Of a stretch of 64,000 nucleotides of DNA, positions 29,766-48,140 are shown in pieces. Numbering within the stretch: position 1 is the first letter of the stretch; each line of letters starts with the position of its first letter. The DNA is from Rubrobacter xylanophilus (GTDB taxonomy: Bacteria > Actinomycetota > Rubrobacteria > Rubrobacterales > Rubrobacteraceae). The notes below the pieces were generated by a model. The model ran no database searches, was not told the origin of the DNA, and saw only the letters and a list, made by a program, of their open reading frames with translations. The stretch spans positions 1 to 64,000 of the forward strand of contig NZ_AP019791.1 of the NCBI RefSeq assembly GCF_007164525.1. The letters run 5' to 3'. Position numbers and translations under genes: made by a program.

Positions 29766-29802
29766 TGTTTTGCAATAAAATACTGCTGCATAATACGCAA
29801 CA
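29766..29802. promoter_or_regulatory. Bipartite palindromic operator candidate, site A
   Basis: TGTTTTGCAATA, 13 nt, then TAATACGCAACA, lying 15 nt upstream of the choline oxidase start. The same 12-13-12 layout recurs at 35135-35171, and both copies are preceded by CCTC. TAAAAT at 29776-29781 and TAATAC at 29791-29796 could be -10 boxes inside it, as expected for a repressor site. Confidence 0.6.
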
Positions 29803-29816
29803 GGGGTCTGCTGTGG

Positions 29817-31364
29817 ATGGAGGAGCCGGTCTTGGACGGGAAACTGAGCTGTGATTATCTGGTTCTTGGGGGTGGGACGGCCGGGGCGGTGGTGGCTGCC
29901 CGGCTGGCCGAGGAGGCGGACGCCGAGGTGGTGCTGGTGGAGGCGGGGCCTTCCGACGAGGGGGACTGGCGGATACTAGAGCTCTGGAACTGGCCGAACC
30001 TGCTTGGCACGCGTTTCGACTACGACTACACGATAGAGCCGCAGGAGCGGGGCAACAGCCTCATCCGGCACAGCCGGGGGAAGGTGCTTGGGGGGTGCAG
30101 TTCGCACAACTCGGCCATCGCCTTCCGGGCTCCGGAGCATGACCTGAGGATCTGGGAGCGTTCTGGGGCTGCGGGATGGGGGCCGGAGGGGACCCGCCCC
30201 TACTACGAGCGGGTCTTCGGCCGGGTTCACGTGGAGACCATCCCTCCTGACAACACCTGCACCGCGGCCTTCGTGGAGGCTGCGAGGCAGGCGGGATTCC
30301 CGCTCCTGCGCTTCAACGAGGAGGAGTTGCGGGAGGGGGTGGGCTGGCTGCAGATAAACGCCCGGGCGGGCATTCGGCAGTCCAGCTCCGTGGCTTATCT
30401 GCACCCGCTCGGGCGGCTTTCGAACCTCACCGTCCTCACCGAGACCCGGGTCTTGCGGATCCTGCTCGACGACGGGGGGGAGGCCGTCGGGGCGGAGACC
30501 TCGCGCGGGGTCATCGAGGCCCGGAGCGAGGTCATCGTCTGTTGCGGGGCCTTCGACTCTCCGAAGCTGCTGATGCTCTCCGGGATCGGTCCCCGGGAGC
30601 ATCTGCGGGAGGTGGGCGTTCCGTGCCGGGTGGAGCTTCCCGGGGTGGGGGAGCATCTGCTCGACCATCCCGAGGGTGTGGTCATCTGGGAGGCCAGCCG
30701 CCCCATCCCGCCCATCTCCCGGCAGGGCTGGGAGGCGGCGCTCTTCGCCCGGATTGATCCGGACTCCGAGGTTCCGGACCTCATGTTCCACTTCGGGACC
30801 AGCGCCTTCGACATGAACACCTCGCAGCTCGGCTATCCCAGCGCCGAGCACGCCTTCAGCCTCACCCCGAACGTCATGCGGGCCAGGAGCGAGGGCTTTC
30901 TCCGGCTGCGTTCCGCCGATCCGTCGGCTCCTCCGGTCATAGACTTCCGCTACTTCACCGACCCCGACGGGTACGACGACTGGATCATGACCGAGGGCGT
31001 AAAGCTCGCCCGCGCCATCGTCGAGCAGCCGGCCTTGAGGCCCTGGGTGAAGCGGGAGCTCGCGCCGGGGCCCAACGTGCGGGGGGACGAGCAGATCTCC
31101 GAGTACGCCCGGCGCAGCGCCAACACCGTCTACCATCCCGCCGGCACCTGCCGCATGGGGGCGCCGGACGATCCGGCGGCGGTCGTGGACCCGCAGCTGC
31201 GGGTGAGGGGGGTGGGCCGGCTCCGCGTCGCGGACGCCTCCATCTTCCCCACCATGATCGGGACCAACCCCTGCATCACCTGCATGATGATCGGGGAGAA
31301 GTGCGCCGACCTCGTGCTCGGCGCCGACGCCGGAACCCTCGCCCCGCGGGAGCTGGTCCGTTGA
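29817..31364 (+). CDS. codA: Choline oxidase
   Basis: A 515-residue GMC-family flavoenzyme that oxidises choline to betaine aldehyde and on to glycine betaine, making hydrogen peroxide. It follows the Arthrobacter choline oxidase sequence closely as I remember it. The FAD fold is YLVLGGGTAGAVVAARL. The covalent flavin His is expected at His97 (LGGCSSHNS), the choline-binding Glu at Glu286 (DHPEGV), and catalytic His440 (NTVYHPAGT) and Asn484 (IGTNPCITC) are present. It is the first gene of the betaine island, overlaps the aldehyde dehydrogenase reading by coupling, and has operator site A upstream. Confidence 0.88.
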   Translation: MEEPVLDGKLSCDYLVLGGGTAGAVVAARLAEEADAEVVLVEAGPSDEGDWRILELWNWPNLLGTRFDYDYTIEPQERGNSLIRHSRGKVLGGCSSHNSAIAFRAPEHDLRIWERSGAAGWGPEGTRPYYERVFGRVHVETIPPDNTCTAAFVEAARQAGFPLLRFNEEELREGVGWLQINARAGIRQSSSVAYLHPLGRLSNLTVLTETRVLRILLDDGGEAVGAETSRGVIEARSEVIVCCGAFDSPKLLMLSGIGPREHLREVGVPCRVELPGVGEHLLDHPEGVVIWEASRPIPPISRQGWEAALFARIDPDSEVPDLMFHFGTSAFDMNTSQLGYPSAEHAFSLTPNVMRARSEGFLRLRSADPSAPPVIDFRYFTDPDGYDDWIMTEGVKLARAIVEQPALRPWVKRELAPGPNVRGDEQISEYARRSANTVYHPAGTCRMGAPDDPAAVVDPQLRVRGVGRLRVADASIFPTMIGTNPCITCMMIGEKCADLVLGADAGTLAPRELVR

Positions 31365-31384
31365 GCGGGGCAGCGGAGCACCGG

Positions 31385-32815
31385 ATGTACGTGGCGGGCC
31401 GCTGGACGGAATCCGTCTCCGGGGCCCGGATGGAGGCACGGAGCCCGGCCACCGGCGAGTTACTCGGGACGGTCCCGGAGGGGACCCGGGAGGACGTCCG
31501 GCGGGCCGTGGCCGCGGCCGGGGAGGCCGCCCCCGGATGGGGGGCGCTCCCGGCCTTCGAGCGGGCAGCGGCCATGGACCGGGTCGCCGGGCTCATAGAG
31601 GAGCGCCGGGAGGAGCTCTCCCGGACGCTCGTGATGGACCAGGGCAAGACCCTCGCCGAGGCCCGGGAGGAGGTCGAGGAGCTCGTCCTCTACTTCCGGA
31701 TGGCGGCCGCCGACGCCCCTCGGATCGAGGGAACCATGCCTCCTTCCGTGGATGCGGGCAAGCGGGTGCTCGTCTACAGGGTTCCACGGGGGGTGGTCGG
31801 TGTGATCTCACCGTGGAACTGGCCCTACACCATGCCCGCCGAGCTCATCGCCCCGGCCCTGGCCTGTGGCAACGCGGTGGTCTGGGTGCCCGCTCCGACG
31901 ACCTCCGTCTGCGCCGTCGCTCTGGCCGGTTGCCTGGCCGACACCGGGCTCCCCGCGGGCGTCTTCAACATGGTCACCGGCCCCGGACCGGTGGTGGGGG
32001 ACGAGCTCGCCGCCAACCCCGGAACCCATGCCGTGGGGTTTATCGGTTCCATAGAGACCGGCCGCAAGGTGGCCTCCCGGGCCGCCGGCAAGGCTTTGCT
32101 GCTGGAGATGGGTGGCAACGGTCCCGTGGTGATCCTGGAGGACGCCGACCTCGACGCCGCGGTGAGGGCCTCGATCTCCTCGGCCTTCATGTGCGCCGGC
32201 CAGAGCTGCACCGCCGGGGAGCTGTTCATGGTCCAGGAGGGGGTGCGCGACGCCTTTCTGGAGCGCCTGCTCGAGGAGATGGAGCGCTTCGTGCGCCTCG
32301 GCGATCCCTTCGCGCCGGAGACGACGATGGGCCCGCTGAACAACGAACCCACCGCTGAGAAGGTCGACCGCCACGTGAAGGACGCTCTCGGGCGTGGCGC
32401 CCGGCTCCTCGCCGGCGGCTCCCGGGCCCGCGGCTTCCCCACGGACCTCTACTACGAGCCCACGGTCCTCGACGGCGTCACCCCGGAGATGCTCATCTTT
32501 AAAGAGGAGACCTTCGGTCCGGTGGTTCCGGTCGTCGGGATCCGGGACGAGTCGGAGGCCCTCGCGGCGGTGAACGCCTCGCCCTACGGGCTGCTCTCCG
32601 CCGTGTTCACCGGGGATCTGGAACGGGGTCTACGCTTCGCCGAGGCGGTGAGGACCGGCTGGGTCAACGTGAACGCCTCCTCGAACCACTGGGAGAGCCA
32701 CCTCCCCTTCGGCGGCCGCTCCGGCTCCTCCTCCGGGCTGGGCCGGGTCGGAGGACGCTACCCGATGGAGGCGTTCACCGAACCGAAGACGGTGATCCTG
32801 GATCTCGGCCGCTGA
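31385..32815 (+). CDS. betB: Betaine aldehyde dehydrogenase-like NAD(P)-dependent aldehyde dehydrogenase
   Basis: An aldehyde dehydrogenase of about 476 residues. The active-site Glu is in LLLEMGGNGPVV and the Cys in CAGQSCTAGEL. The nucleotide-binding SPWNWPYTMP segment is present. It would complete oxidation of betaine aldehyde to glycine betaine next to choline oxidase; that substrate is inferred from the neighbour. ATG 31385 has GGAG 7-10 nt upstream. TTG 31361, overlapping the codA stop, is the alternative. Its 3' end overlaps the convergent pabC gene by 41 bp. Confidence 0.85.
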   Translation: MYVAGRWTESVSGARMEARSPATGELLGTVPEGTREDVRRAVAAAGEAAPGWGALPAFERAAAMDRVAGLIEERREELSRTLVMDQGKTLAEAREEVEELVLYFRMAAADAPRIEGTMPPSVDAGKRVLVYRVPRGVVGVISPWNWPYTMPAELIAPALACGNAVVWVPAPTTSVCAVALAGCLADTGLPAGVFNMVTGPGPVVGDELAANPGTHAVGFIGSIETGRKVASRAAGKALLLEMGGNGPVVILEDADLDAAVRASISSAFMCAGQSCTAGELFMVQEGVRDAFLERLLEEMERFVRLGDPFAPETTMGPLNNEPTAEKVDRHVKDALGRGARLLAGGSRARGFPTDLYYEPTVLDGVTPEMLIFKEETFGPVVPVVGIRDESEALAAVNASPYGLLSAVFTGDLERGLRFAEAVRTGWVNVNASSNHWESHLPFGGRSGSSSGLGRVGGRYPMEAFTEPKTVILDLGR

Positions 32816-33667
32816 GAAACCGCTCCCACTCCTTCCTCAGCCGCGCCACGAGCTCCCTCGCCTCGCCTCCCCCGACCGCTCGCCCGTCCACCCGGCGGAC
32901 CGGCATGATCCCCATCAGGGCGTTGGTGAGAAAGCACCCCTCTGCCGCCGCGAGCTCCCCGGGCTCCACGGGGCGCTCCTCGACCTCCAGCCCGAGCCGC
33001 CCGGCGAGCTCCAGCACGACCCCCCGGGCGACGCCGGGGAGCGCCCCGGCGTCTACCTCGGGCGTGATGAGGCCCCCGCCGCGGACGAGAAAGACGTTGG
33101 CGGCGGAGGCTCCGGCGAGCATATCCGCGGTGTTTAGCAGGATCGCCTCGTCAGCCCCCCGGACGGCGGCCTCCCGGCGGGCCAGGACGTTCTCCAGGTA
33201 GCTCAGGGACTTTATCCGCGCGAGCGGCGAGCGTTCGTTGCGCCGGATGCCGCACGTGATCGCCTCCATCCCCCGCCGGTAGAGCTCCTCAGGGTACGCG
33301 TACGGATGAGCCTGCACGACGACCGTGGCCCTCTCTCTTCCCGTGGGCAGCAGGCCGCGCACCTCCGGGACCCCCCGGCTCACCGTGAGGCGCACTGCTC
33401 CGTCCTGAAGCCCGTTCGCCTTCACGGTCCGGGCGACCGCCCCGGCCAGCTCCGTCTCCGGCGGAAGGTGCATGCCCAGAACCTCTGCCCCCCGGCGCAT
33501 CCGGGCGAGGTGTCTCGCCAGCAGCGGGACGCCCCCCTCGCGGCACAGCATGGTCTCGAAGAGCCCGTCCCCGAGCGCGTAGCCCCGGTCGCGTGGATCC
33601 AGGCCGGCCTCCCCGGGCGCAAGGAGCCGCCCGTCGATCCATACGAGGGACGACGTCGCCCCCCCGC

Positions 33668-33671
<4 letters not shown>
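32775..33671 (-). CDS. pabC: Aminodeoxychorismate lyase-like class IV PLP enzyme
   Basis: A fold-type IV PLP enzyme of about 298 residues. The PLP lysine is in RIKSLSYLEN, the early DRGYALGDGLFET motif is typical, and LLNTADMLAGASAANVF matches the family. Branched-chain or D-amino acid aminotransferases share the fold, but the coupling to pabB (GTG 33671 or 33674 overlapping its stop) supports 4-amino-4-deoxychorismate lyase. This makes p-aminobenzoate for folate. The pair is inserted, on the opposite strand, in an island of tetrahydrofolate-dependent enzymes. Confidence 0.82.
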
Positions 33672-35119
<1,448 letters not shown>

Positions 35120-35134
35120 CTTAGCATCAACCTC

Positions 35135-35171
35135 TGTTGCGCAATAATAAATTGTTTTGTAATATAGAACA
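35135..35171. promoter_or_regulatory. Bipartite palindromic operator candidate, site B
   Basis: TGTTGCGCAATA, 13 nt, then TAATATAGAACA, with the same layout and CCTC flank as site A. On the minus strand TATTAT (reverse complement of 35144-35149) within it could be the pabB -10 box. Confidence 0.6.
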
Positions 35172-35234
35172 AAGAATGGATGGGCGGTCGACGACGGAAT
35201 CTGGTGCTTGACCCTGAGAGAGACTTATGTTACT

Positions 35235-35272
35235 TGTTTCGTGTAAAAAAATACTGATCGCAATGCGCAACA
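35235..35272. promoter_or_regulatory. Operator candidate, site C
   Basis: TGTTTCGTGTAA and CAATGCGCAACA bound a 38-bp element with the shared core AAAATACTG. The right half, read in reverse (TGTTGCGCATTG), matches the left half of site B at 10 of 12 positions. It lies about 70 nt before the dimethylglycine oxidase start. Confidence 0.45.
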
Positions 35273-35340: not shown

Positions 35341-37779
35341 ATGGAGGACAGGGCGCGGGTGGTGATCATCGGGGCCGGCATCGTGGGGTGCAGTGCGGCC
35401 GAGCACCTCACGCGGCTGGGTTGGACGGACGTGGTCGTTCTGGAGCGGGGGCTGCTCTTCGAGGCCGGTGGTTCGACGAGCCATGCGCCGGGGCTGGTCT
35501 TCCAGACCAACCCCTCCAGGGCGATGACGCGGCTCGCCAGCTATGGCGTGGAGCGCTATTCGGAGCTCGAGCTGGACGGGAAGCCGTGTTTCTATCCGGT
35601 TGGCGGTCTGGAGGTGGCGGCGACCCCTGAGAGGTGGCGGGATCTCAAGCGCCGGCACGGGCTGGCGACCTCTTGGGGCATTGAGTCGCATCTGCTCTCA
35701 CCCCGGGAGTGTGTCGAGAAGAGCCCGCTTCTGGAGCCCGGCAACATCTACGGTGGTTTCTACGTGCCTTCGGATGGGATCGCCAAGGCGGTGCGCATCT
35801 CGGAGGCCATGGCCCGGCTGGCCGAGTCGCGGGGGGCCAGGTTCTACGGCGGGACGGAGGTCACCGGCATCGAGGTGAAGGACGGGCGCGTCCGGGCGGT
35901 CGAGACCTCGCGGGGGCGGATAGAGACCGAGGTCGTGCTCAGCTGCGCTGGGATGTGGGGGCCTCGCATCTGTCGGATGGCCGGGGCCTTCCCGCAGCTG
36001 CTCGTCCCCATGCAGCACCAGTACGCCGTGACCACCCCTGTGCCCGGGCTCGAGCCCGAGTCCGAGGAGTCGGACCACGTCATCCTCCGGCACCAGGACC
36101 ACTCGATGTACTTCCGGCAGCAGGGGGAGCGCTACGGCATCGGCTCCTACCGCCACCGGGTAATGCCCGTGGATCCCGACGACATCGGGCGTTCAGGGGA
36201 GGGGATGCCCTCCATCATGGAGTTCACCTCCGAGGACTTCCGAGGACCCTGGGAGGAGGCCCGGAGGATGCTGCCCGCGCTGCGGCAGACGGAGATAGAG
36301 CACGGCATAAACGGCCTCTTCTCCTTCACCCCCGACGGTGGGCCGCTCATCGGGCCATCTACGGCGGTGCGGGGCTTCTGGGTCGCCGAGGCCATCTGGG
36401 TGACGCACGCCGCCGGGGCGGCCCGGGCCGTGGCCGAGTGGATGGTGGAAGGGGCGCCGCAGGTGGATCTCGGCGGGCTTGACGTGAGCCGTTTCGACGA
36501 GTACGCCCGGAGCCCCTCCTACGTCATGGCCCGCAGCAGCCAGTCCTTCCGCGAAGTCTACGACATCATCCACCCCATGCAGCCCATGGAGGAGCCCAGG
36601 CCCCTCAGGACCAGCCCCTTCTACCCCCGCCAGCGGGAGCTCGGGGCCTACTTCCTGGAGGCCTCCGGCTGGGAGCGCCCGCAGTGGTACGCGGCCAACG
36701 AGCCTCTCGTCGCCGGCCGCGACATCCCCGAACGCGACGACTGGAGCGGGCGGTACTGGTCTCCCGTCGTCGGGGCGGAGCACCAGATCACGCGGGAGAC
36801 CGGGGGGCTCTTCGACCTCGCCTCCCTCAAGAAGGCCGAGGTCGGCGGCCCCGGGGCGCTCGCCTTCCTGCAGCGGATGACCACGGGGCAGATGGATCGT
36901 CCGGTGGGCAGCGTCACCTACACCCTGATGCTCGACCCCGGGGGAGGGGTCCGGAGCGACATAACCGTGGCCCGTATCTCCAGGGACCTCTTCCGGCTCG
37001 GGCTCAACGGACCGCAGGATGTCGCCTGGCTCCAGAGACATCTGCCCGAGGACGGGTCCGTTTGGCTGCGGGACATCTCCGGCGGGACCTGCTGCGTCGG
37101 GGTCTGGGGACCGGCGGCGCGGGAGCTCGTGCAGTCTCTGAGCCCCGACGACCTCTCCGACGAGGCCTTCGGCTTCTTCCAGGTCCGCCGGATACACGTC
37201 GGTGAGGTGCCCGTGCTCGCGATGCGGGTCTCCTACGTCGGCGAGCTCGGCTGGGAGCTCTACGCCTCCGCGGACATGGGGTTGCGGCTCTGGGACCTCC
37301 TCTACGGGGCTGGCAGGCCCCTCGGGGTCATCCCCGCCGGGCGCGGGGCCTTCGAAGGTCTGCGGCTCGAGAAGGGCTACCGGATGTGGGGCGTGGACGT
37401 GACCAACGAGCACGACCCCTACGAGGCCGGGCTCGGCTTCGCGGTCAAGCCGGAGAAGGGGGACTTCATCGGGCGGGACGCCGTGCTCCGGCGCCGGGAG
37501 GAGGGGCCGCGCAGGAAGCTCTGCTGCCTCCTGCCCGACGACCCGCGGGTGGTGGTGATGGGCAGCGAGCCCGTCTACGCGGAGGGCAGACCGGTCGGCT
37601 ACGTTACCAGCGCCGGTTACGGCTACTCGATCGGGCGGAGCATCGCCTACGCCTGGCTCCCGCCCGCCCTTGCCGAGGTCGGTCAGAGGGTCGAGATCGA
37701 GTACTTCGGCCGGCGCTACGGCGCCGCGGTGGCCGAGGAGCCGCTCTTCGACCCGGCGATGAAGCGGATGCGGGGCTAG
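35341..37779 (+). CDS. Dimethylglycine oxidase, THF-dependent bifunctional enzyme
   Basis: An 812-residue fusion of an N-terminal FAD oxidase (residues 1-420) and a C-terminal GcvT-like folate domain (about 430-812). It matches Arthrobacter dimethylglycine oxidase along its length, from VVIIGAGIVG to the C-terminal FDPAMKRMRG. The FAD is expected to be linked to His48 (GSTSHAPG). Active-site positions known from that enzyme are kept: His in MQHQYAVTT, Tyr in YGIGSYRHR and folate-site Asp in GVRSDITVAR. It converts dimethylglycine to sarcosine and channels the methyl carbon to 5,10-methylene-THF. GGAGGTG precedes ATG 35341. Sarcosine dehydrogenase is a less likely alternative. Confidence 0.9.
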   Translation: MEDRARVVIIGAGIVGCSAAEHLTRLGWTDVVVLERGLLFEAGGSTSHAPGLVFQTNPSRAMTRLASYGVERYSELELDGKPCFYPVGGLEVAATPERWRDLKRRHGLATSWGIESHLLSPRECVEKSPLLEPGNIYGGFYVPSDGIAKAVRISEAMARLAESRGARFYGGTEVTGIEVKDGRVRAVETSRGRIETEVVLSCAGMWGPRICRMAGAFPQLLVPMQHQYAVTTPVPGLEPESEESDHVILRHQDHSMYFRQQGERYGIGSYRHRVMPVDPDDIGRSGEGMPSIMEFTSEDFRGPWEEARRMLPALRQTEIEHGINGLFSFTPDGGPLIGPSTAVRGFWVAEAIWVTHAAGAARAVAEWMVEGAPQVDLGGLDVSRFDEYARSPSYVMARSSQSFREVYDIIHPMQPMEEPRPLRTSPFYPRQRELGAYFLEASGWERPQWYAANEPLVAGRDIPERDDWSGRYWSPVVGAEHQITRETGGLFDLASLKKAEVGGPGALAFLQRMTTGQMDRPVGSVTYTLMLDPGGGVRSDITVARISRDLFRLGLNGPQDVAWLQRHLPEDGSVWLRDISGGTCCVGVWGPAARELVQSLSPDDLSDEAFGFFQVRRIHVGEVPVLAMRVSYVGELGWELYASADMGLRLWDLLYGAGRPLGVIPAGRGAFEGLRLEKGYRMWGVDVTNEHDPYEAGLGFAVKPEKGDFIGRDAVLRRREEGPRRKLCCLLPDDPRVVVMGSEPVYAEGRPVGYVTSAGYGYSIGRSIAYAWLPPALAEVGQRVEIEYFGRRYGAAVAEEPLFDPAMKRMRG

Positions 37780-37789
37780 GGAGAGAGGC

Positions 37790-38746
37790 ATGATGGGCAT
37801 CCGATACGCGGGAGAACACCGGGCTTTGGCCTCCAGCATCCTCGACGCGATCGGCGACACGCCGCTCATAAAGCTCGAAGGCATCTACTGCAAGCTGGAG
37901 TACCTCAACCCCTCAGGCTCCATCAAGGCGCGCATCGCCAAATACATGATCGAGAAAGCAGAAAGAGAAGGGCTGCTTAAGCCCGGCGACACCATAGTCG
38001 AGGCCACAAGCGGCAACACCGGCAACGCCCTCTCCATGGTGGCGGCCGTCAAAGGCTACAGGATGGTGGTGGTGATGCCCGAGGGGCTCTCTGGAGAGCG
38101 GGTGGCCATAAGCCGCTCCTTCGGAGCGGAGATACTGCAGGTAGGGCACTTCCACGTGGATGCGGCGCTAAAGAAGGCGAAAGAGCTTGGGCAGAGGGAG
38201 GGCTACTACTGCCCCTCCCAGTTTGAGTCGGAGTGGAACGTGGAGGAGAACCGCACTTGGCTTGGGCCTGAGATACTCGAGCAGCTGGATGCGGGAGGGG
38301 TTGTACCGGATGCCCTGGTGATGGGTGTAGGGACTGGGGGGACGCTCATAGGGGTAGGGCAGGCCTTCAGGGAGAGAAACCCCAAAGCCAGGCTCTTTGC
38401 GGTGGAGCCGGACGAGTCGTGCACGATTCTGTGCGGGGAGGTAGGGCGGCATCAGATAGAAGGCATTTCGGATGGCTTTGTGCCGGGGATATACGAGCGG
38501 CACAAAGCCATTGTGGACGGGGTGATAGCGGTAAGTTCTGAGGAAGCGGTTAGGGAGATGCGGCGCCTGGCATGCCGCTACGGGTTGTTTGTAGGACCGT
38601 CGAGCGGGGCGAACCTGGTGGCGGCGCGGCGGGTGAGGGAGGAGCATCCGGAGCTAAAGAACATCGTCACGCTCTTCTGCGACGAGGGCGAGAAGTACAT
38701 CTCAGAGCATTTTTCGGTTCGTAGGAGGGGTGATGCTGCGAAGTAG
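37790..38746 (+). CDS. Cysteine synthase-like PLP enzyme of unknown role
   Basis: A 318-residue fold-type II PLP enzyme. The PLP lysine is Lys46 in YLNPSGSIKAR; the usual motif reads KDR or KYR, so the following residue is unusual. The phosphate loop is ATSGNTGNALS, and FCDEGEKYISEHF closes the family pattern. It could be an O-acetylserine or O-phosphoserine sulfhydrylase, or a specialised beta-replacement enzyme. A second such enzyme (CysM, 16105-17022) already serves cysteine synthesis. It lies 11 nt after dimethylglycine oxidase, so it is probably cotranscribed. Codon use appears less GC-biased than in the neighbours. Confidence 0.82.
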   Translation: MMGIRYAGEHRALASSILDAIGDTPLIKLEGIYCKLEYLNPSGSIKARIAKYMIEKAEREGLLKPGDTIVEATSGNTGNALSMVAAVKGYRMVVVMPEGLSGERVAISRSFGAEILQVGHFHVDAALKKAKELGQREGYYCPSQFESEWNVEENRTWLGPEILEQLDAGGVVPDALVMGVGTGGTLIGVGQAFRERNPKARLFAVEPDESCTILCGEVGRHQIEGISDGFVPGIYERHKAIVDGVIAVSSEEAVREMRRLACRYGLFVGPSSGANLVAARRVREEHPELKNIVTLFCDEGEKYISEHFSVRRRGDAAK

Positions 38747-45375: not shown

Positions 45376-45381
45376 TAGAAT
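45376..45381 (+). promoter_or_regulatory. Probable -10 box of a leaderless regulator mRNA
   Basis: TAGAAT ends 8 nt before ATG 45389. It overlaps an alternative in-frame ATG at 45380, which argues for the downstream start. Confidence 0.45.
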
Positions 45382-45388
45382 GTCATTG

Positions 45389-46162
45389 ATGGATGCTTTG
45401 AACCGCAGGAGCGGCTCCGTACAGTCCGTGGACCGGGCCATAACGGTGCTGGAGCTTCTGGCACGCAACGGCTGGTCGGGGGTGACGGAGGTCGCGAACA
45501 AGCTTGGCATACACAAGTCCACCGCCTACCGGCTCCTGACGACGCTGAGGGACCGGGGGCTCGTCGAGCAGGACGCTGCGACGGAGAAGTACCGGCTCGG
45601 GTTCGGGCTGGTGCTGCTGGCCCAGTCGGTGACCGCGGACCTGGACATCCTCGGCTGTGCCCGCCCGGTGTGCGAGCACCTGAGCGAGCGGACGGGGGAG
45701 ACCGTCACCGTCGCCGTGCTGGAGGGCGACGAAGCGGTCGTCGTCCACCAGCAGATCTCCGACGCTTCGGCGCTGAGCGTGGACTGGACCGGGCGGGCTA
45801 CGCCGCTGCACGCGACGGCAGCGGGCAAGATCTTCCTGCTCCACATGCCGGAAGAACAGCGGCGGCGCCTGCTGAAGGGCCCGCTGCCCCGCTATACGGA
45901 GAACACGATCGTGGAGCCGAAGCGCCTGCTGGAGCACGTTCAGGAGATCCAGGAGACCGGATACGCCTGCACGATCGAGGAGCTGGAGGAGGGGCTGAAC
46001 GCCGTCGGCGCCCCCATCTACGCTTCGGGCGGAGCGGTCGCGGGGGCGGTGACGATCTCCGGACCCGCCTTCCGGATGCCGCGGGAGTCGGTGCCGAAGC
46101 TGGGCGAGCTGGTCAAGGAGGCGGCGGCGGAGATCTCTCGCTGCCTGGGCTTCAAGGGCTGA
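45389..46162 (+). CDS. IclR-family transcriptional regulator
   Basis: A regulator of about 257 residues. The winged helix-turn-helix lies at about 10-70 (VDRAITVLELLA, ANKLGIHKSTAYRLLTTL). The IclR effector domain follows (HATAAGKIFLLHMPEE, YACTIEELEEGLNAVGAPI). It sits at the end of the betaine island and is the only regulator there. It is therefore the natural candidate to bind the bipartite palindromes at 29766 and 35135. Likely effectors are betaine, dimethylglycine or sarcosine (inference). Confidence 0.92.
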   Translation: MDALNRRSGSVQSVDRAITVLELLARNGWSGVTEVANKLGIHKSTAYRLLTTLRDRGLVEQDAATEKYRLGFGLVLLAQSVTADLDILGCARPVCEHLSERTGETVTVAVLEGDEAVVVHQQISDASALSVDWTGRATPLHATAAGKIFLLHMPEEQRRRLLKGPLPRYTENTIVEPKRLLEHVQEIQETGYACTIEELEEGLNAVGAPIYASGGAVAGAVTISGPAFRMPRESVPKLGELVKEAAAEISRCLGFKG

Positions 46163-46206: not shown

Positions 46207-47664
46207 CTATCCCGCCCCCGGCGAGGTGCGTCCGATCGAGCGTTCCGCGCGGAGCTTCTCCAGAGCCGCCCGCCGGGGCGTCAGATGTCGCTGCGGGGTT
46301 CCGAGGCGCTCCAGGAAAGAGACCGCCTCCTCGACCAACCGGATGCCCTCGCCGGAGGTTCCGGGCCAGACGTTGTGCTTCTCCTGCGGGTCTCGTTCGA
46401 GATCGTAGAGCTCGGGTTCGTCCTCCGGCCCCCCGAGGATGAGCGAGCGCTCTGGGGTGGTGACGGTGAGCGGCATATAGCTCGAGATGCGCCGGGGCCT
46501 GGAGTCCACGGCGGTGGTGAGCTCACCCTCGGCGAAGTACAGGGGCCAGGAACTTATGACGAAGCGCCTGTGCTCCTCCCGCTCACCGCGCAGCACGCCG
46601 AGGAAGGAATCTCCCTGCATGCTCTCTGGCCTCTCCACCCCTGCCAGCTCCAGCAGGGTGGGGGCGAGGTCTGGATGGGTGGTCATGGTCGTCCTGCGCC
46701 CGGGAGATACTCCGGGGACGCGGGCGATGAGCGGCACCCGGGTGAGCTCGGAGTAGAGGGGAGACCACCCCACGGTGAGCAGCCAGGATTCGGAGAGCCA
46801 GTCGGGCAGTACGGAGTCCTCGGAGACCACCGCGTCCGGGTCGTGCACCCACTCGGCCTTCCCGAAGTAGCCGTGCTCGCCGAAGTAGAAGCCGTGGTCG
46901 GAGAGGAAGAAGACGGCGGTGTTCTCCCGAAGCCCCAAAACGTCGAGCTTGGAGAGCAGCCGGCCGATCCACAGGTCGACCATGGTGACCTCGCCGCAGT
47001 AGGTGGCGTGGGCCACCCGGACGTCCTCCTCGGAGAGCCCGACCTCCTCCCACCTCCCGTAGGCCGGGTAGATCCTGCGCCCGTCGTAGTCCGGGCGGTA
47101 GAGCCGGGTGTAATACTCCGGTGCGTCCCAGGGCTCGTGCGGGTCCCAGGTGTCCACGTAGAGGAAGAAGCGCTCCCGGTGGTGCCGCTCGAGCCAGCGC
47201 TCGGCCTCGGTCATGGTGCGCGCCACCATCCTGTCGGACTCGTAGCGCCAGGTGGAACGGCAGTCGGAGCGCTCCTGCGGCCGAGTATCGTCGCCCTGTC
47301 CCCGGACCCAGATGAAGTCGTCGAACCCCCGGTCGTAGCCGTAGCCGTTCCGGACGAAGAAGGGGGTGTCGACGATCCCCATGGTGAGGTACCCGGCCCG
47401 GGAGAGCAGCCCGGGCAGCGTGGGCAGGTGCCCGGGCAGCGGTTCCCATCCCATGAAGGTGCAGGAGAAGGTCCCCGTGAGGATGTCCGCCCGGGCGGGC
47501 ATGGTGGGGAAGGAGGAGATCACGTGCCGCTCGAAGACCACCGCCGAGCGCGCGAAGGCATCCAGGTTGGGCGTCCGGATCCAGAGGTTTCCATAAGCCC
47601 CCAGGTGATCCCGCCGAAACGTGTCCGAAACTATGACGATGATGTTCGGGCGCTCCACCGCCAT
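46207..47664 (-). CDS. Sulfatase-fold hydrolase with Thr at the formylglycine position
   Basis: An alkaline-phosphatase-superfamily protein of about 485 residues. The N-terminal metal motif is IIVIVSDTFRRDHLGAYGN, and the second metal site is LSDHGFYFGEHG. True sulfatases carry C/S-x-P-x-R, with Cys or Ser matured to formylglycine. Here the aligned segment is SSFPTMPARADILTG, with Thr54 at the nucleophile position. It may be a phosphodiesterase or phosphonate hydrolase rather than a sulfatase. Longer readings exist, but ATG 47664 has TAGGAGA upstream. It converges on the IclR gene. Confidence 0.82.
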   Translation of the reverse strand: MAVERPNIIVIVSDTFRRDHLGAYGNLWIRTPNLDAFARSAVVFERHVISSFPTMPARADILTGTFSCTFMGWEPLPGHLPTLPGLLSRAGYLTMGIVDTPFFVRNGYGYDRGFDDFIWVRGQGDDTRPQERSDCRSTWRYESDRMVARTMTEAERWLERHHRERFFLYVDTWDPHEPWDAPEYYTRLYRPDYDGRRIYPAYGRWEEVGLSEEDVRVAHATYCGEVTMVDLWIGRLLSKLDVLGLRENTAVFFLSDHGFYFGEHGYFGKAEWVHDPDAVVSEDSVLPDWLSESWLLTVGWSPLYSELTRVPLIARVPGVSPGRRTTMTTHPDLAPTLLELAGVERPESMQGDSFLGVLRGEREEHRRFVISSWPLYFAEGELTTAVDSRPRRISSYMPLTVTTPERSLILGGPEDEPELYDLERDPQEKHNVWPGTSGEGIRLVEEAVSFLERLGTPQRHLTPRRAALEKLRAERSIGRTSPGAG

Positions 47665-48140
47665 TTCTCCTACCGCTCCTCCCTCTACTCGTAGGGGCTG
47701 CCTCGGCAACTCATTCAGACCTGGGGGCCCGGCGGCGCCCGATGCCCCTCCCGCACCAGCTGCGTGAACGCCCCAGAGGACCCTGCAGTTTTGTCTATTA
47801 AATAAATATACATTGTGTAAATATACCATTGGGGACCGCCGCGGCGCAACGTGGCTGGGATTCCTACGCCGGATGGTCCGGACCCAGCGGATCTTCGTTG
47901 CATGATGCGCAAGAGTATCTCATATCAAAACCACAAATATCACGGGGTACTTTCTTCGGCAAGGCGACTTGCAGGCGAAACTCGTTGCTGTATGGTGGAG
48001 TTTTCTTGGAGGTTGTGAGGATGAAAGAGGAGAGTGGTGGTTGCGTCATTAGAACCAGTTGTGTACTATAAGACAGAATCTCTGGTGGAAAGATGTAGAA
48101 CTGGGGTGAATAGGTGCGGGCTATCGCCGGTGGTGGTGGC
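47665..48140. other. AT-rich intergenic region with divergent promoters
   Basis: These 476 bp hold no convincing gene. The part from about 47785 to 48110 is much richer in A and T than the rest of the window. It contains an AT tract at 47798-47828 with TACA-TTG-TGTA symmetry, an imperfect palindrome TTGCATGATGCGCAA at about 47900-47914, and ACTATAAGAC near 48065, a possible -10 box for the rightward gene. Low GC and lack of coding suggest a regulatory region or a remnant of imported DNA. Confidence 0.45.

What the first reader, a model, noticed from the sequence alone, without database searches (positions are those of the whole stretch)
29766..35272. Shared 12-13-12 palindromic operator upstream of codA and between pabB and dimethylglycine oxidase
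Sites at 29766-29802 and 35135-35171 have the same length (37 bp), the same half-site spacing and the same CCTC flank: TGTTkyGCAATA, 13 nt, TAATAyrsAACA. A third, looser copy lies at 35235-35272. They sit 5.4 kb apart at the two promoter regions of the betaine island. The IclR regulator at the island's end is the obvious candidate binder.
Basis: partly seen in the sequence, partly recalled or inferred. Interest (0 to 1): 0.7.

Follow-up and report, generated by a model that had tools for sequence, protein, structure and literature searches.

The report
Tandem IclR operators controlling betaine breakdown
The repeated DNA element is a conserved switch site, almost certainly bound by the IclR-type regulator next door, that controls choline and betaine breakdown genes together with a folate-vitamin gene in Rubrobacter, and the same site and protein recur across actinobacteria as far as Streptomyces.

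Summary
The sites are real and specific: a profile finds exactly three copies in the 3.02-Mb genome, all in this locus. The "12-13-12 palindrome" is a misreading. Each 37/38-bp element is two abutting 19-bp palindromes (TGTTkCGyA-n-TrCGCAACA type), 18-19 bp apart, which is the published tandem layout of IclR-family operators. In about ten Rubrobacteraceae genera it lies at a fixed distance behind TTGACY-N17-extended -10, upstream of the dimethylglycine-oxidase gene. A fourth, weaker copy precedes the sulfatase gene (47895-47933, minus strand). Nearly every strong hit in the family precedes the DMGO operon or the sulfatase gene. A matrix trained only on Rubrobacteraceae finds the same 38-bp element in Streptomyces, Amycolatopsis, Nocardioides and others, beside orthologues of the same IclR. 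There it precedes iclR itself, betaine-aldehyde-type dehydrogenase, DMGO, a Rieske gene, BCCT, pabB and folP. Shuffled matrices find nothing; other spacings almost nothing. Best explanation: an IclR repressor, probably a tetramer, covers the -10/+1 region and is released by a pathway metabolite. The 35135 site probably governs pabB, tying folate supply to betaine demethylation. Binding and effector are untested. The mechanism class is known; I found no report of this regulon.

The parts
29766..29802 (+). Operator P1 before the GMC (choline dehydrogenase/oxidase-like)-ALDH operon: palindrome A 29766-29784, palindrome B 29784-29802 (TGCTGCATA-A-TACGCAACA)
   Evidence: E 3.2e-4; 42.3 bits with a matrix from other genera; orthologous site in G001
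35135..35171 (-). Operator P2 in the pabB/DMGO intergenic region, best score in the minus (pabB) orientation: palindrome A 35135-35153, B 35153-35171 (TGTTTTGTA-A-TATAGAACA)
   Evidence: E 4.7e-3; 39.7 bits, minus strand; conserved in G001
35144..35172 (-). Proposed pabB promoter inside P2: TTGTTC (35172-35167) - 17 nt - TATTAT (35149-35144); TTGTTT-N17-TATTAT in G001
   Evidence: read; inference, not found by the consensus scan
35235..35272 (+). Operator P3 before the DMGO-cysK-dmdA-metF-fhs-gcvT-soxA-iclR operon: palindrome A 35235-35253, B 35254-35272; the conserved copy across the family
   Evidence: E 1.6e-5; E 2.1e-4 with a profile lacking this genus; 49.5 bits
35208..35236 (+). DMGO promoter: TTGACC (35208-35213), 17 nt, extended -10 TATGt-TACTTG (35231-35236) overlapping the first half-site of P3
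   Evidence: same element at the same distance in most genera examined
47895..47933 (-). Fourth, degenerate operator before the sulfatase gene; promoter-like TTGCCG-N17-TATTTG just upstream
   Evidence: 25.3-26.8 bits, above 2000 shuffles (max 23.2); orthologous site in G001 L210:2050 (28.5 bits); strong sites before sulfatase orthologues in many genera
45380..46162 (+). IclR-family regulator, proposed binder (HTH_IclR + IclR_C)
29817..31364 (+). GMC oxidoreductase, choline dehydrogenase-like (start perhaps TTG 29832)
31301..32815 (+). Aldehyde dehydrogenase, betaine-aldehyde dehydrogenase-like (coding from about 31376)
33668..35119 (-). pabB, aminodeoxychorismate synthase component I, followed by pabC-like 32775-33674 (-)
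   Evidence: TIGR00553 359.6 bits, cut-off 328.4
35341..37779 (+). Dimethylglycine oxidase/dehydrogenase-like (FAD + GcvT domains), first gene of the catabolic operon
46207..47829 (-). Sulfatase, regulon member in relatives; substrate unproven (choline-sulfatase model 108.6 bits, cut-off 433)

Best explanation
The elements are tandem operators of the IclR-family protein encoded at 45380-46162, and each consists of two abutting 19-bp palindromes (four half-sites, the outer palindrome often degenerate). Two IclR dimers, probably one tetramer, bind side by side over the -10 and start region of the promoters and block them (repression). A metabolite of the choline, betaine, dimethylglycine or sarcosine pathway releases the protein. 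This opens the GMC-ALDH operon (P1), the DMGO-to-iclR operon (P3), pabB-pabC (P2) and, more weakly, the sulfatase gene. Including pabB couples synthesis of p-aminobenzoate, hence tetrahydrofolate, to a pathway that loads methyl groups onto tetrahydrofolate. Shown by sequence: the elements, their architecture, specificity and conservation, and their linkage to this IclR clade and these genes. Inferred: binding, tetramer, repression, the inducer, and that P2 acts on pabB.
For: Genome-wide specificity. Synteny of the operon with iclR in about ten genera. Fixed geometry TTGACY-N17-TAYnnG then operator. Family-wide hits almost only at the same genes. Sites directly upstream of iclR orthologues and a paralogue (G016 L051, G024 L036, G004 L058). 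Cross-phylum test: a Rubrobacteraceae-only matrix gives 105 sites over 24 bits in 78 other actinobacterial loci, 65 of them within 350 bp upstream of iclR (29), ALDH, DMGO or GMC, on 6.4% of the sequence. Column-shuffled and reversed matrices give 0 sites over 25 bits, and the main spacing gives 97 against at most 5 for any other. Recognition-helix residues H45, K46, T48 and R51 are invariant in 81 clade members. pabB or folP operators also occur in Streptomyces. The layout matches the published IclR group-1 GTT-11-AAC tandem class (PMC8222616).
Against: No binding data. P1 and P2 lack the conserved TTGAC promoter upstream and were seen only in the window's genus. The profile built without this genus misses P2 at E up to 10, although the matrix finds it. 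G013 has the operator and DMGO but no IclR orthologue; its assembly is 92% complete. About 40 of the 105 distant sites lie by genes I identified only in part.
Confidence: 0.83

Rival explanations
1. A different regulator binds the sites, for example the second IclR-type protein that sits by the sulfatase operator in one genus.
For: In G027 that gene (36% identical) diverges from the sulfatase with an operator between them, and it lies near the cluster in G035 and G033.
Against: Its orthologues exist in only 6 of 36 family genomes and not in the window's genome. The 45380 orthologue is present in 22 of the 23 DMGO-bearing genomes. Across actinobacteria 28 of 78 loci carry the element directly upstream of a 45380-clade iclR.
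Confidence: 0.06
2. The IclR protein activates rather than represses, like PcaU or PobR, with P1 and P2 as activator sites.
For: PcaU/PobR-type operators also add a direct half-site to a palindrome (PMC8222616). P1 has no recognisable -35/-10 upstream.
Against: At P3 and at most DMGO and sulfatase promoters the element starts inside the -10 and runs downstream, where an activator could not easily act.
Confidence: 0.12
3. P2 serves DMGO as an auxiliary operator (looping with P3, 100 bp apart) rather than pabB.
For: It lies in the shared intergenic region, centred 100 bp upstream of P3.
Against: It scores best in the pabB orientation, covers a conserved TTGTTY-N17-TATTAT on the pabB strand, was not seen where pabB is not adjacent, and Streptomyces pabB and folP have operators of their own.
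Confidence: 0.3
4. The resemblance is chance in AT-rich intergenic DNA.
For: Both intergenic regions are AT-rich against a 68% GC window.
Against: Shuffles, shuffled matrices and altered spacings fail to reproduce it, and it is conserved across genera and families.
Confidence: 0.005

Closest known systems
IclR-family group-1 operators, GTT-11-AAC subgroup, tandem sites 18-22 nt apart (Suvorova and Gelfand 2021, PMC8222616)
   Same: Half-site sequence, palindrome type, odd-centred 19-bp palindromes and 18-19-nt centre spacing fit.
   Different: Main text of that paper mentions no betaine, choline, sarcosine, folate or Rubrobacter regulon; its supplementary tables could not be read.
TtgV-operator complex (Pseudomonas putida; PDB 2xrn/2xro)
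   Same: IclR-family repressor, tetramer on tandem half-sites; the window protein matches it (E 5e-20).
   Different: Effectors are solvents (general knowledge); only moderate sequence similarity; TtgV details come from citing text, its paper was not readable here.
PcaU/PobR/HmgR three-repeat operators
   Same: Palindrome plus an extra half-site in direct orientation.
   Different: Here there are two abutting palindromes placed over the -10/start, not upstream for activation.
Known regulators of choline/betaine/sarcosine catabolism: BetI (TetR), GbdR (AraC), SoxR of Bacillus (sigma54-dependent)
   Same: Same pathway (BetI and GbdR from general knowledge; Bacillus SoxR from the abstract of PMC4941409).
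   Different: Different protein families; no IclR regulator of this pathway turned up in the paper searches.

Membership tests
IclR-family transcription factors (protein 45380-46162) | N-terminal IclR winged helix-turn-helix plus C-terminal IclR effector domain | tested here: met
   Pfam HTH_IclR 61.3 bits (cut-off 22), IclR_C 145 bits (cut-off 24); PDB IclR relatives
IclR group-1 tandem operators | GTTYCRYW3RYGRAAC-type palindrome with odd centre | tested here: met
   Consensus TGTTgCgcAt.aCGCAAc / TGCGC.ATgCGCAACA over 105 sites; the window copies are degenerate versions
IclR group-1 tandem operators | Two palindromes with centres 18-22 nt apart | tested here: met
   18 nt (P1, P2) or 19 nt (P3); other spacings lose the signal
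IclR group-1 tandem operators | Bound by the cognate IclR protein, dimers or tetramer | not testable with these tools
   needs gel shift or footprint
PcaU/PobR-type three-repeat operators | One palindrome plus one direct repeat, placed upstream of the promoter for activation | tested here: not met
   Position over -10 and downstream; a fourth half-site is visible in relatives
Choline oxidase CodA (gene at 29817) | Curated match to choline oxidase or choline dehydrogenase | tested here: inconclusive
   Best hit choline dehydrogenase 371 bits, below the 605 cut-off
Choline sulfatase BetC (46207-47829) | Curated match to TIGR03417 | tested here: not met
   108.6 bits against cut-off 433; sulfatase superfamily only

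The most novel reading that the evidence does not exclude
One IclR clade and one operator-plus-promoter module control choline and betaine breakdown across much of the Actinomycetota, and in both Rubrobacter and Streptomyces the regulon includes folate synthesis (pabB, folP), so one-carbon carrier supply is induced together with the methyl-group donor pathway.
Probability: 0.65. Interest if true: 0.6.

Novelty: new member of a known kind. Interest (0 to 1): 0.5.

Why it matters
It gives a candidate regulator, operator code and regulon for betaine and choline breakdown in actinobacteria, where I found no described regulator. It also predicts that folate biosynthesis is switched on together with a methyl-donor catabolic pathway, a link that can be tested directly by expression measurements in Rubrobacter or Streptomyces.

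Tried and rejected
The 12-13-12 single palindrome was rejected by re-parsing into half-sites and by relatives showing two full palindromes. A three-half-site PcaU-like reading was my first idea; it was replaced by tandem palindromes once L039, L049 and others showed the fourth half-site. The second IclR as general binder was rejected. Chance was rejected. Alignment A2 mis-gapped and was not used. The consensus promoter scan was uninformative: it needs T at position 6 of the -10, and its minus-strand 'terminator' at 29803-29783 is simply palindrome B of P1. Co-occurrence of operator and IclR in the family was not used as proof, because the operator is also tied to the presence of its target genes. 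Literature searches for an IclR regulator of betaine breakdown found none; supplementary tables and subscription papers could not be read, so a prior prediction (for example in RegPrecise) is not excluded.

Full report
OBSERVATION. The two 37-bp sites stand exactly where reported. The genome (3,022,875 bp, one contig) holds the degenerate pattern only at these two places, with none for the reversed control. Scanning half-sites shows that each element has a further unit in the supposed spacer: 29766+, 29784+, 29791- and 35135+, 35153+, 35160-. The right-hand pair forms a 19-bp palindrome in each (TGCTGCATA-A-TACGCAACA, TGTTTTGTA-A-TATAGAACA). The left 12-mer begins a second palindrome whose other arm is degenerate.

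CONSERVED FORM. The IclR orthologue (59-92% identical) was found in 21 other Rubrobacteraceae genomes of those searched, and stretches of up to 20 kb around it were read. The order DMGO-(cysK)-dmdA-metF-fhs-gcvT-soxA-iclR is syntenic across much of the family. Upstream of DMGO, most genera examined carry TTGACY, 17 nt, an extended -10 (TRTGnTAY), then a 37- or 38-bp element that begins inside the -10. In G023 (Rubrobacter marinus by identity with L108) both palindromes are plain: CGTTTCTTATATAAGAACG followed by CGTTGCTTTATGCGCAACA. The window's 35235-35272 copy is this element; its TTGACC lies at 35208-35213 and its -10 at 35231-35236.

SPECIFICITY. A sequence-only profile of 14 sites (R1; E-values are circular for its own members) gives three hits in the whole genome at E up to 10. 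In 60 relatives it gives hits in 27. Of the family hits inspected, those with E below 0.5 lie before DMGO, before dmdA (one genome where DMGO lies elsewhere) or in the promoter region of the sulfatase orthologue; a few of the weakest hits were not inspected and one hit with E 0.68 (L085) had no known partner gene. The profile without any site of the window's genus (R2) still finds P3 (E 2e-4) and P1 (E 0.05) and nothing else in the genome. A matrix from 26 sites of other genera ranks P3, P1 and P2 first to third in the window. Fourth is 47895-47933 on the minus strand, 66 bp before the sulfatase start. The G001 orthologue of that fourth site is stronger, and both have a TTGCnG-N17-TATTTG promoter in the usual place.

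BEYOND THE FAMILY. Relatives of the IclR in named genomes (43-52% identical; Streptomyces, Amycolatopsis, Nocardioides, Nonomuraea, Geodermatophilus, Arthrobacter and others) sit near DMGO (46 of 80 loci), GMC (33) or ALDH (33) genes. With the Rubrobacteraceae-only matrix, 105 sites above 24 bits appear in 52 of 78 loci. Of these, 65 lie within 350 bp upstream of iclR (29), ALDH (25), DMGO (12) or GMC (2; a site can count for two genes), in 6.4% of the sequence. Twelve column-shuffled matrices and the reversed one give none above 25 bits. Only the main spacing gives a large count, 97 against at most 5 for any other. TTGAC stands at about the same distance upstream in 38 of the 105. In an evenly drawn set of 198 phylum genomes, R2 hits outside the family fall before DMGO, ALDH, Rieske or iclR, with one before an MFS transporter; that search used strict filters and is not exhaustive.

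FOLATE LINK. P2 (35135-35171) scores best in the pabB orientation and covers TTGTTY-N17-TATTAT, conserved in G001, 16 bp from the pabB start. pabB itself passes the curated cut-off. In Streptomyces justiciae (L180) the best-scoring site of all lies just before pabB, again behind TTGACA. In L172 and L185 sites lie before folP (DHPS above cut-off in L172). L180 also has sites before a betaine-type BCCT transporter, S-(hydroxymethyl)mycothiol dehydrogenase and a Rieske gene. The pathway hands methyl groups to tetrahydrofolate (GcvT-type domains, formate-THF ligase in the operon), so co-induction of folate synthesis makes physiological sense. That last step is inference.

WHO BINDS. The site type is the published IclR group-1 GTT-11-AAC tandem class, attributed there to tetramers (PMC8222616). 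The regulator is encoded in the controlled operon and, in many relatives, directly behind such a site. Recognition-helix residues H45, K46, T48 and R51 are invariant across 81 clade members. A second IclR found next to the sulfatase operator in one genus is missing from the window's genome and from 30 of 36 family genomes. W136 of the effector domain is invariant in the clade but absent from three of five paralogues, a lead for ligand sensing only.

MECHANISM. Because the element overlaps the -10 and start at P3 and its orthologues, repression by occlusion is the most likely mode, with release by a pathway metabolite. Binding, the oligomer, the inducer and the P1 promoter are not shown here.

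NOVELTY. Mechanism and site class are known. I found no description of an IclR regulator of choline or betaine catabolism, nor of its link to pabB or folP, in the searched library. Supplementary tables and subscription papers were out of reach.

Noticed in passing
window 48038-48076 (+): TGGTTGCGTCATTAGAACCAGTTGTGTACTATAAGACAG, nearly identical in G001 (L210:2191), looks like a weak IclR-type tandem or a conserved promoter before the ORF at 48114.
   Followed up: partly
window 29817-29832: The GMC gene probably starts at TTG 29832: relative G001 has ACG in place of the ATG at 29817 while GGAGG is kept.
   Followed up: partly
window 45380-46162, residue W136: A tryptophan in the effector domain is invariant in 81 clade members and absent from three of five paralogues; possible quaternary-ammonium contact.
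   Followed up: no
L058:8044 (G004:C14): A second copy of the IclR (51% identical) with its own tandem operator just upstream, suggesting autoregulation and duplication.
   Followed up: no
L201 (G043:C15:67254): A profile hit (E 0.004) behind TTGACA precedes an MFS transporter gene in a distant actinobacterium.
   Followed up: partly
window 37790-38746: A CysK-like PLP enzyme sits inside the betaine operon between DMGO and the dmdA-like gene in several genera; its role in this pathway is unclear.
   Followed up: no
window 46207-47829: The sulfatase orthologue carries an operator in many genera, including genomes where it lies far from the DMGO cluster; its substrate (choline-O-sulfate?) is unproven.
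   Followed up: partly
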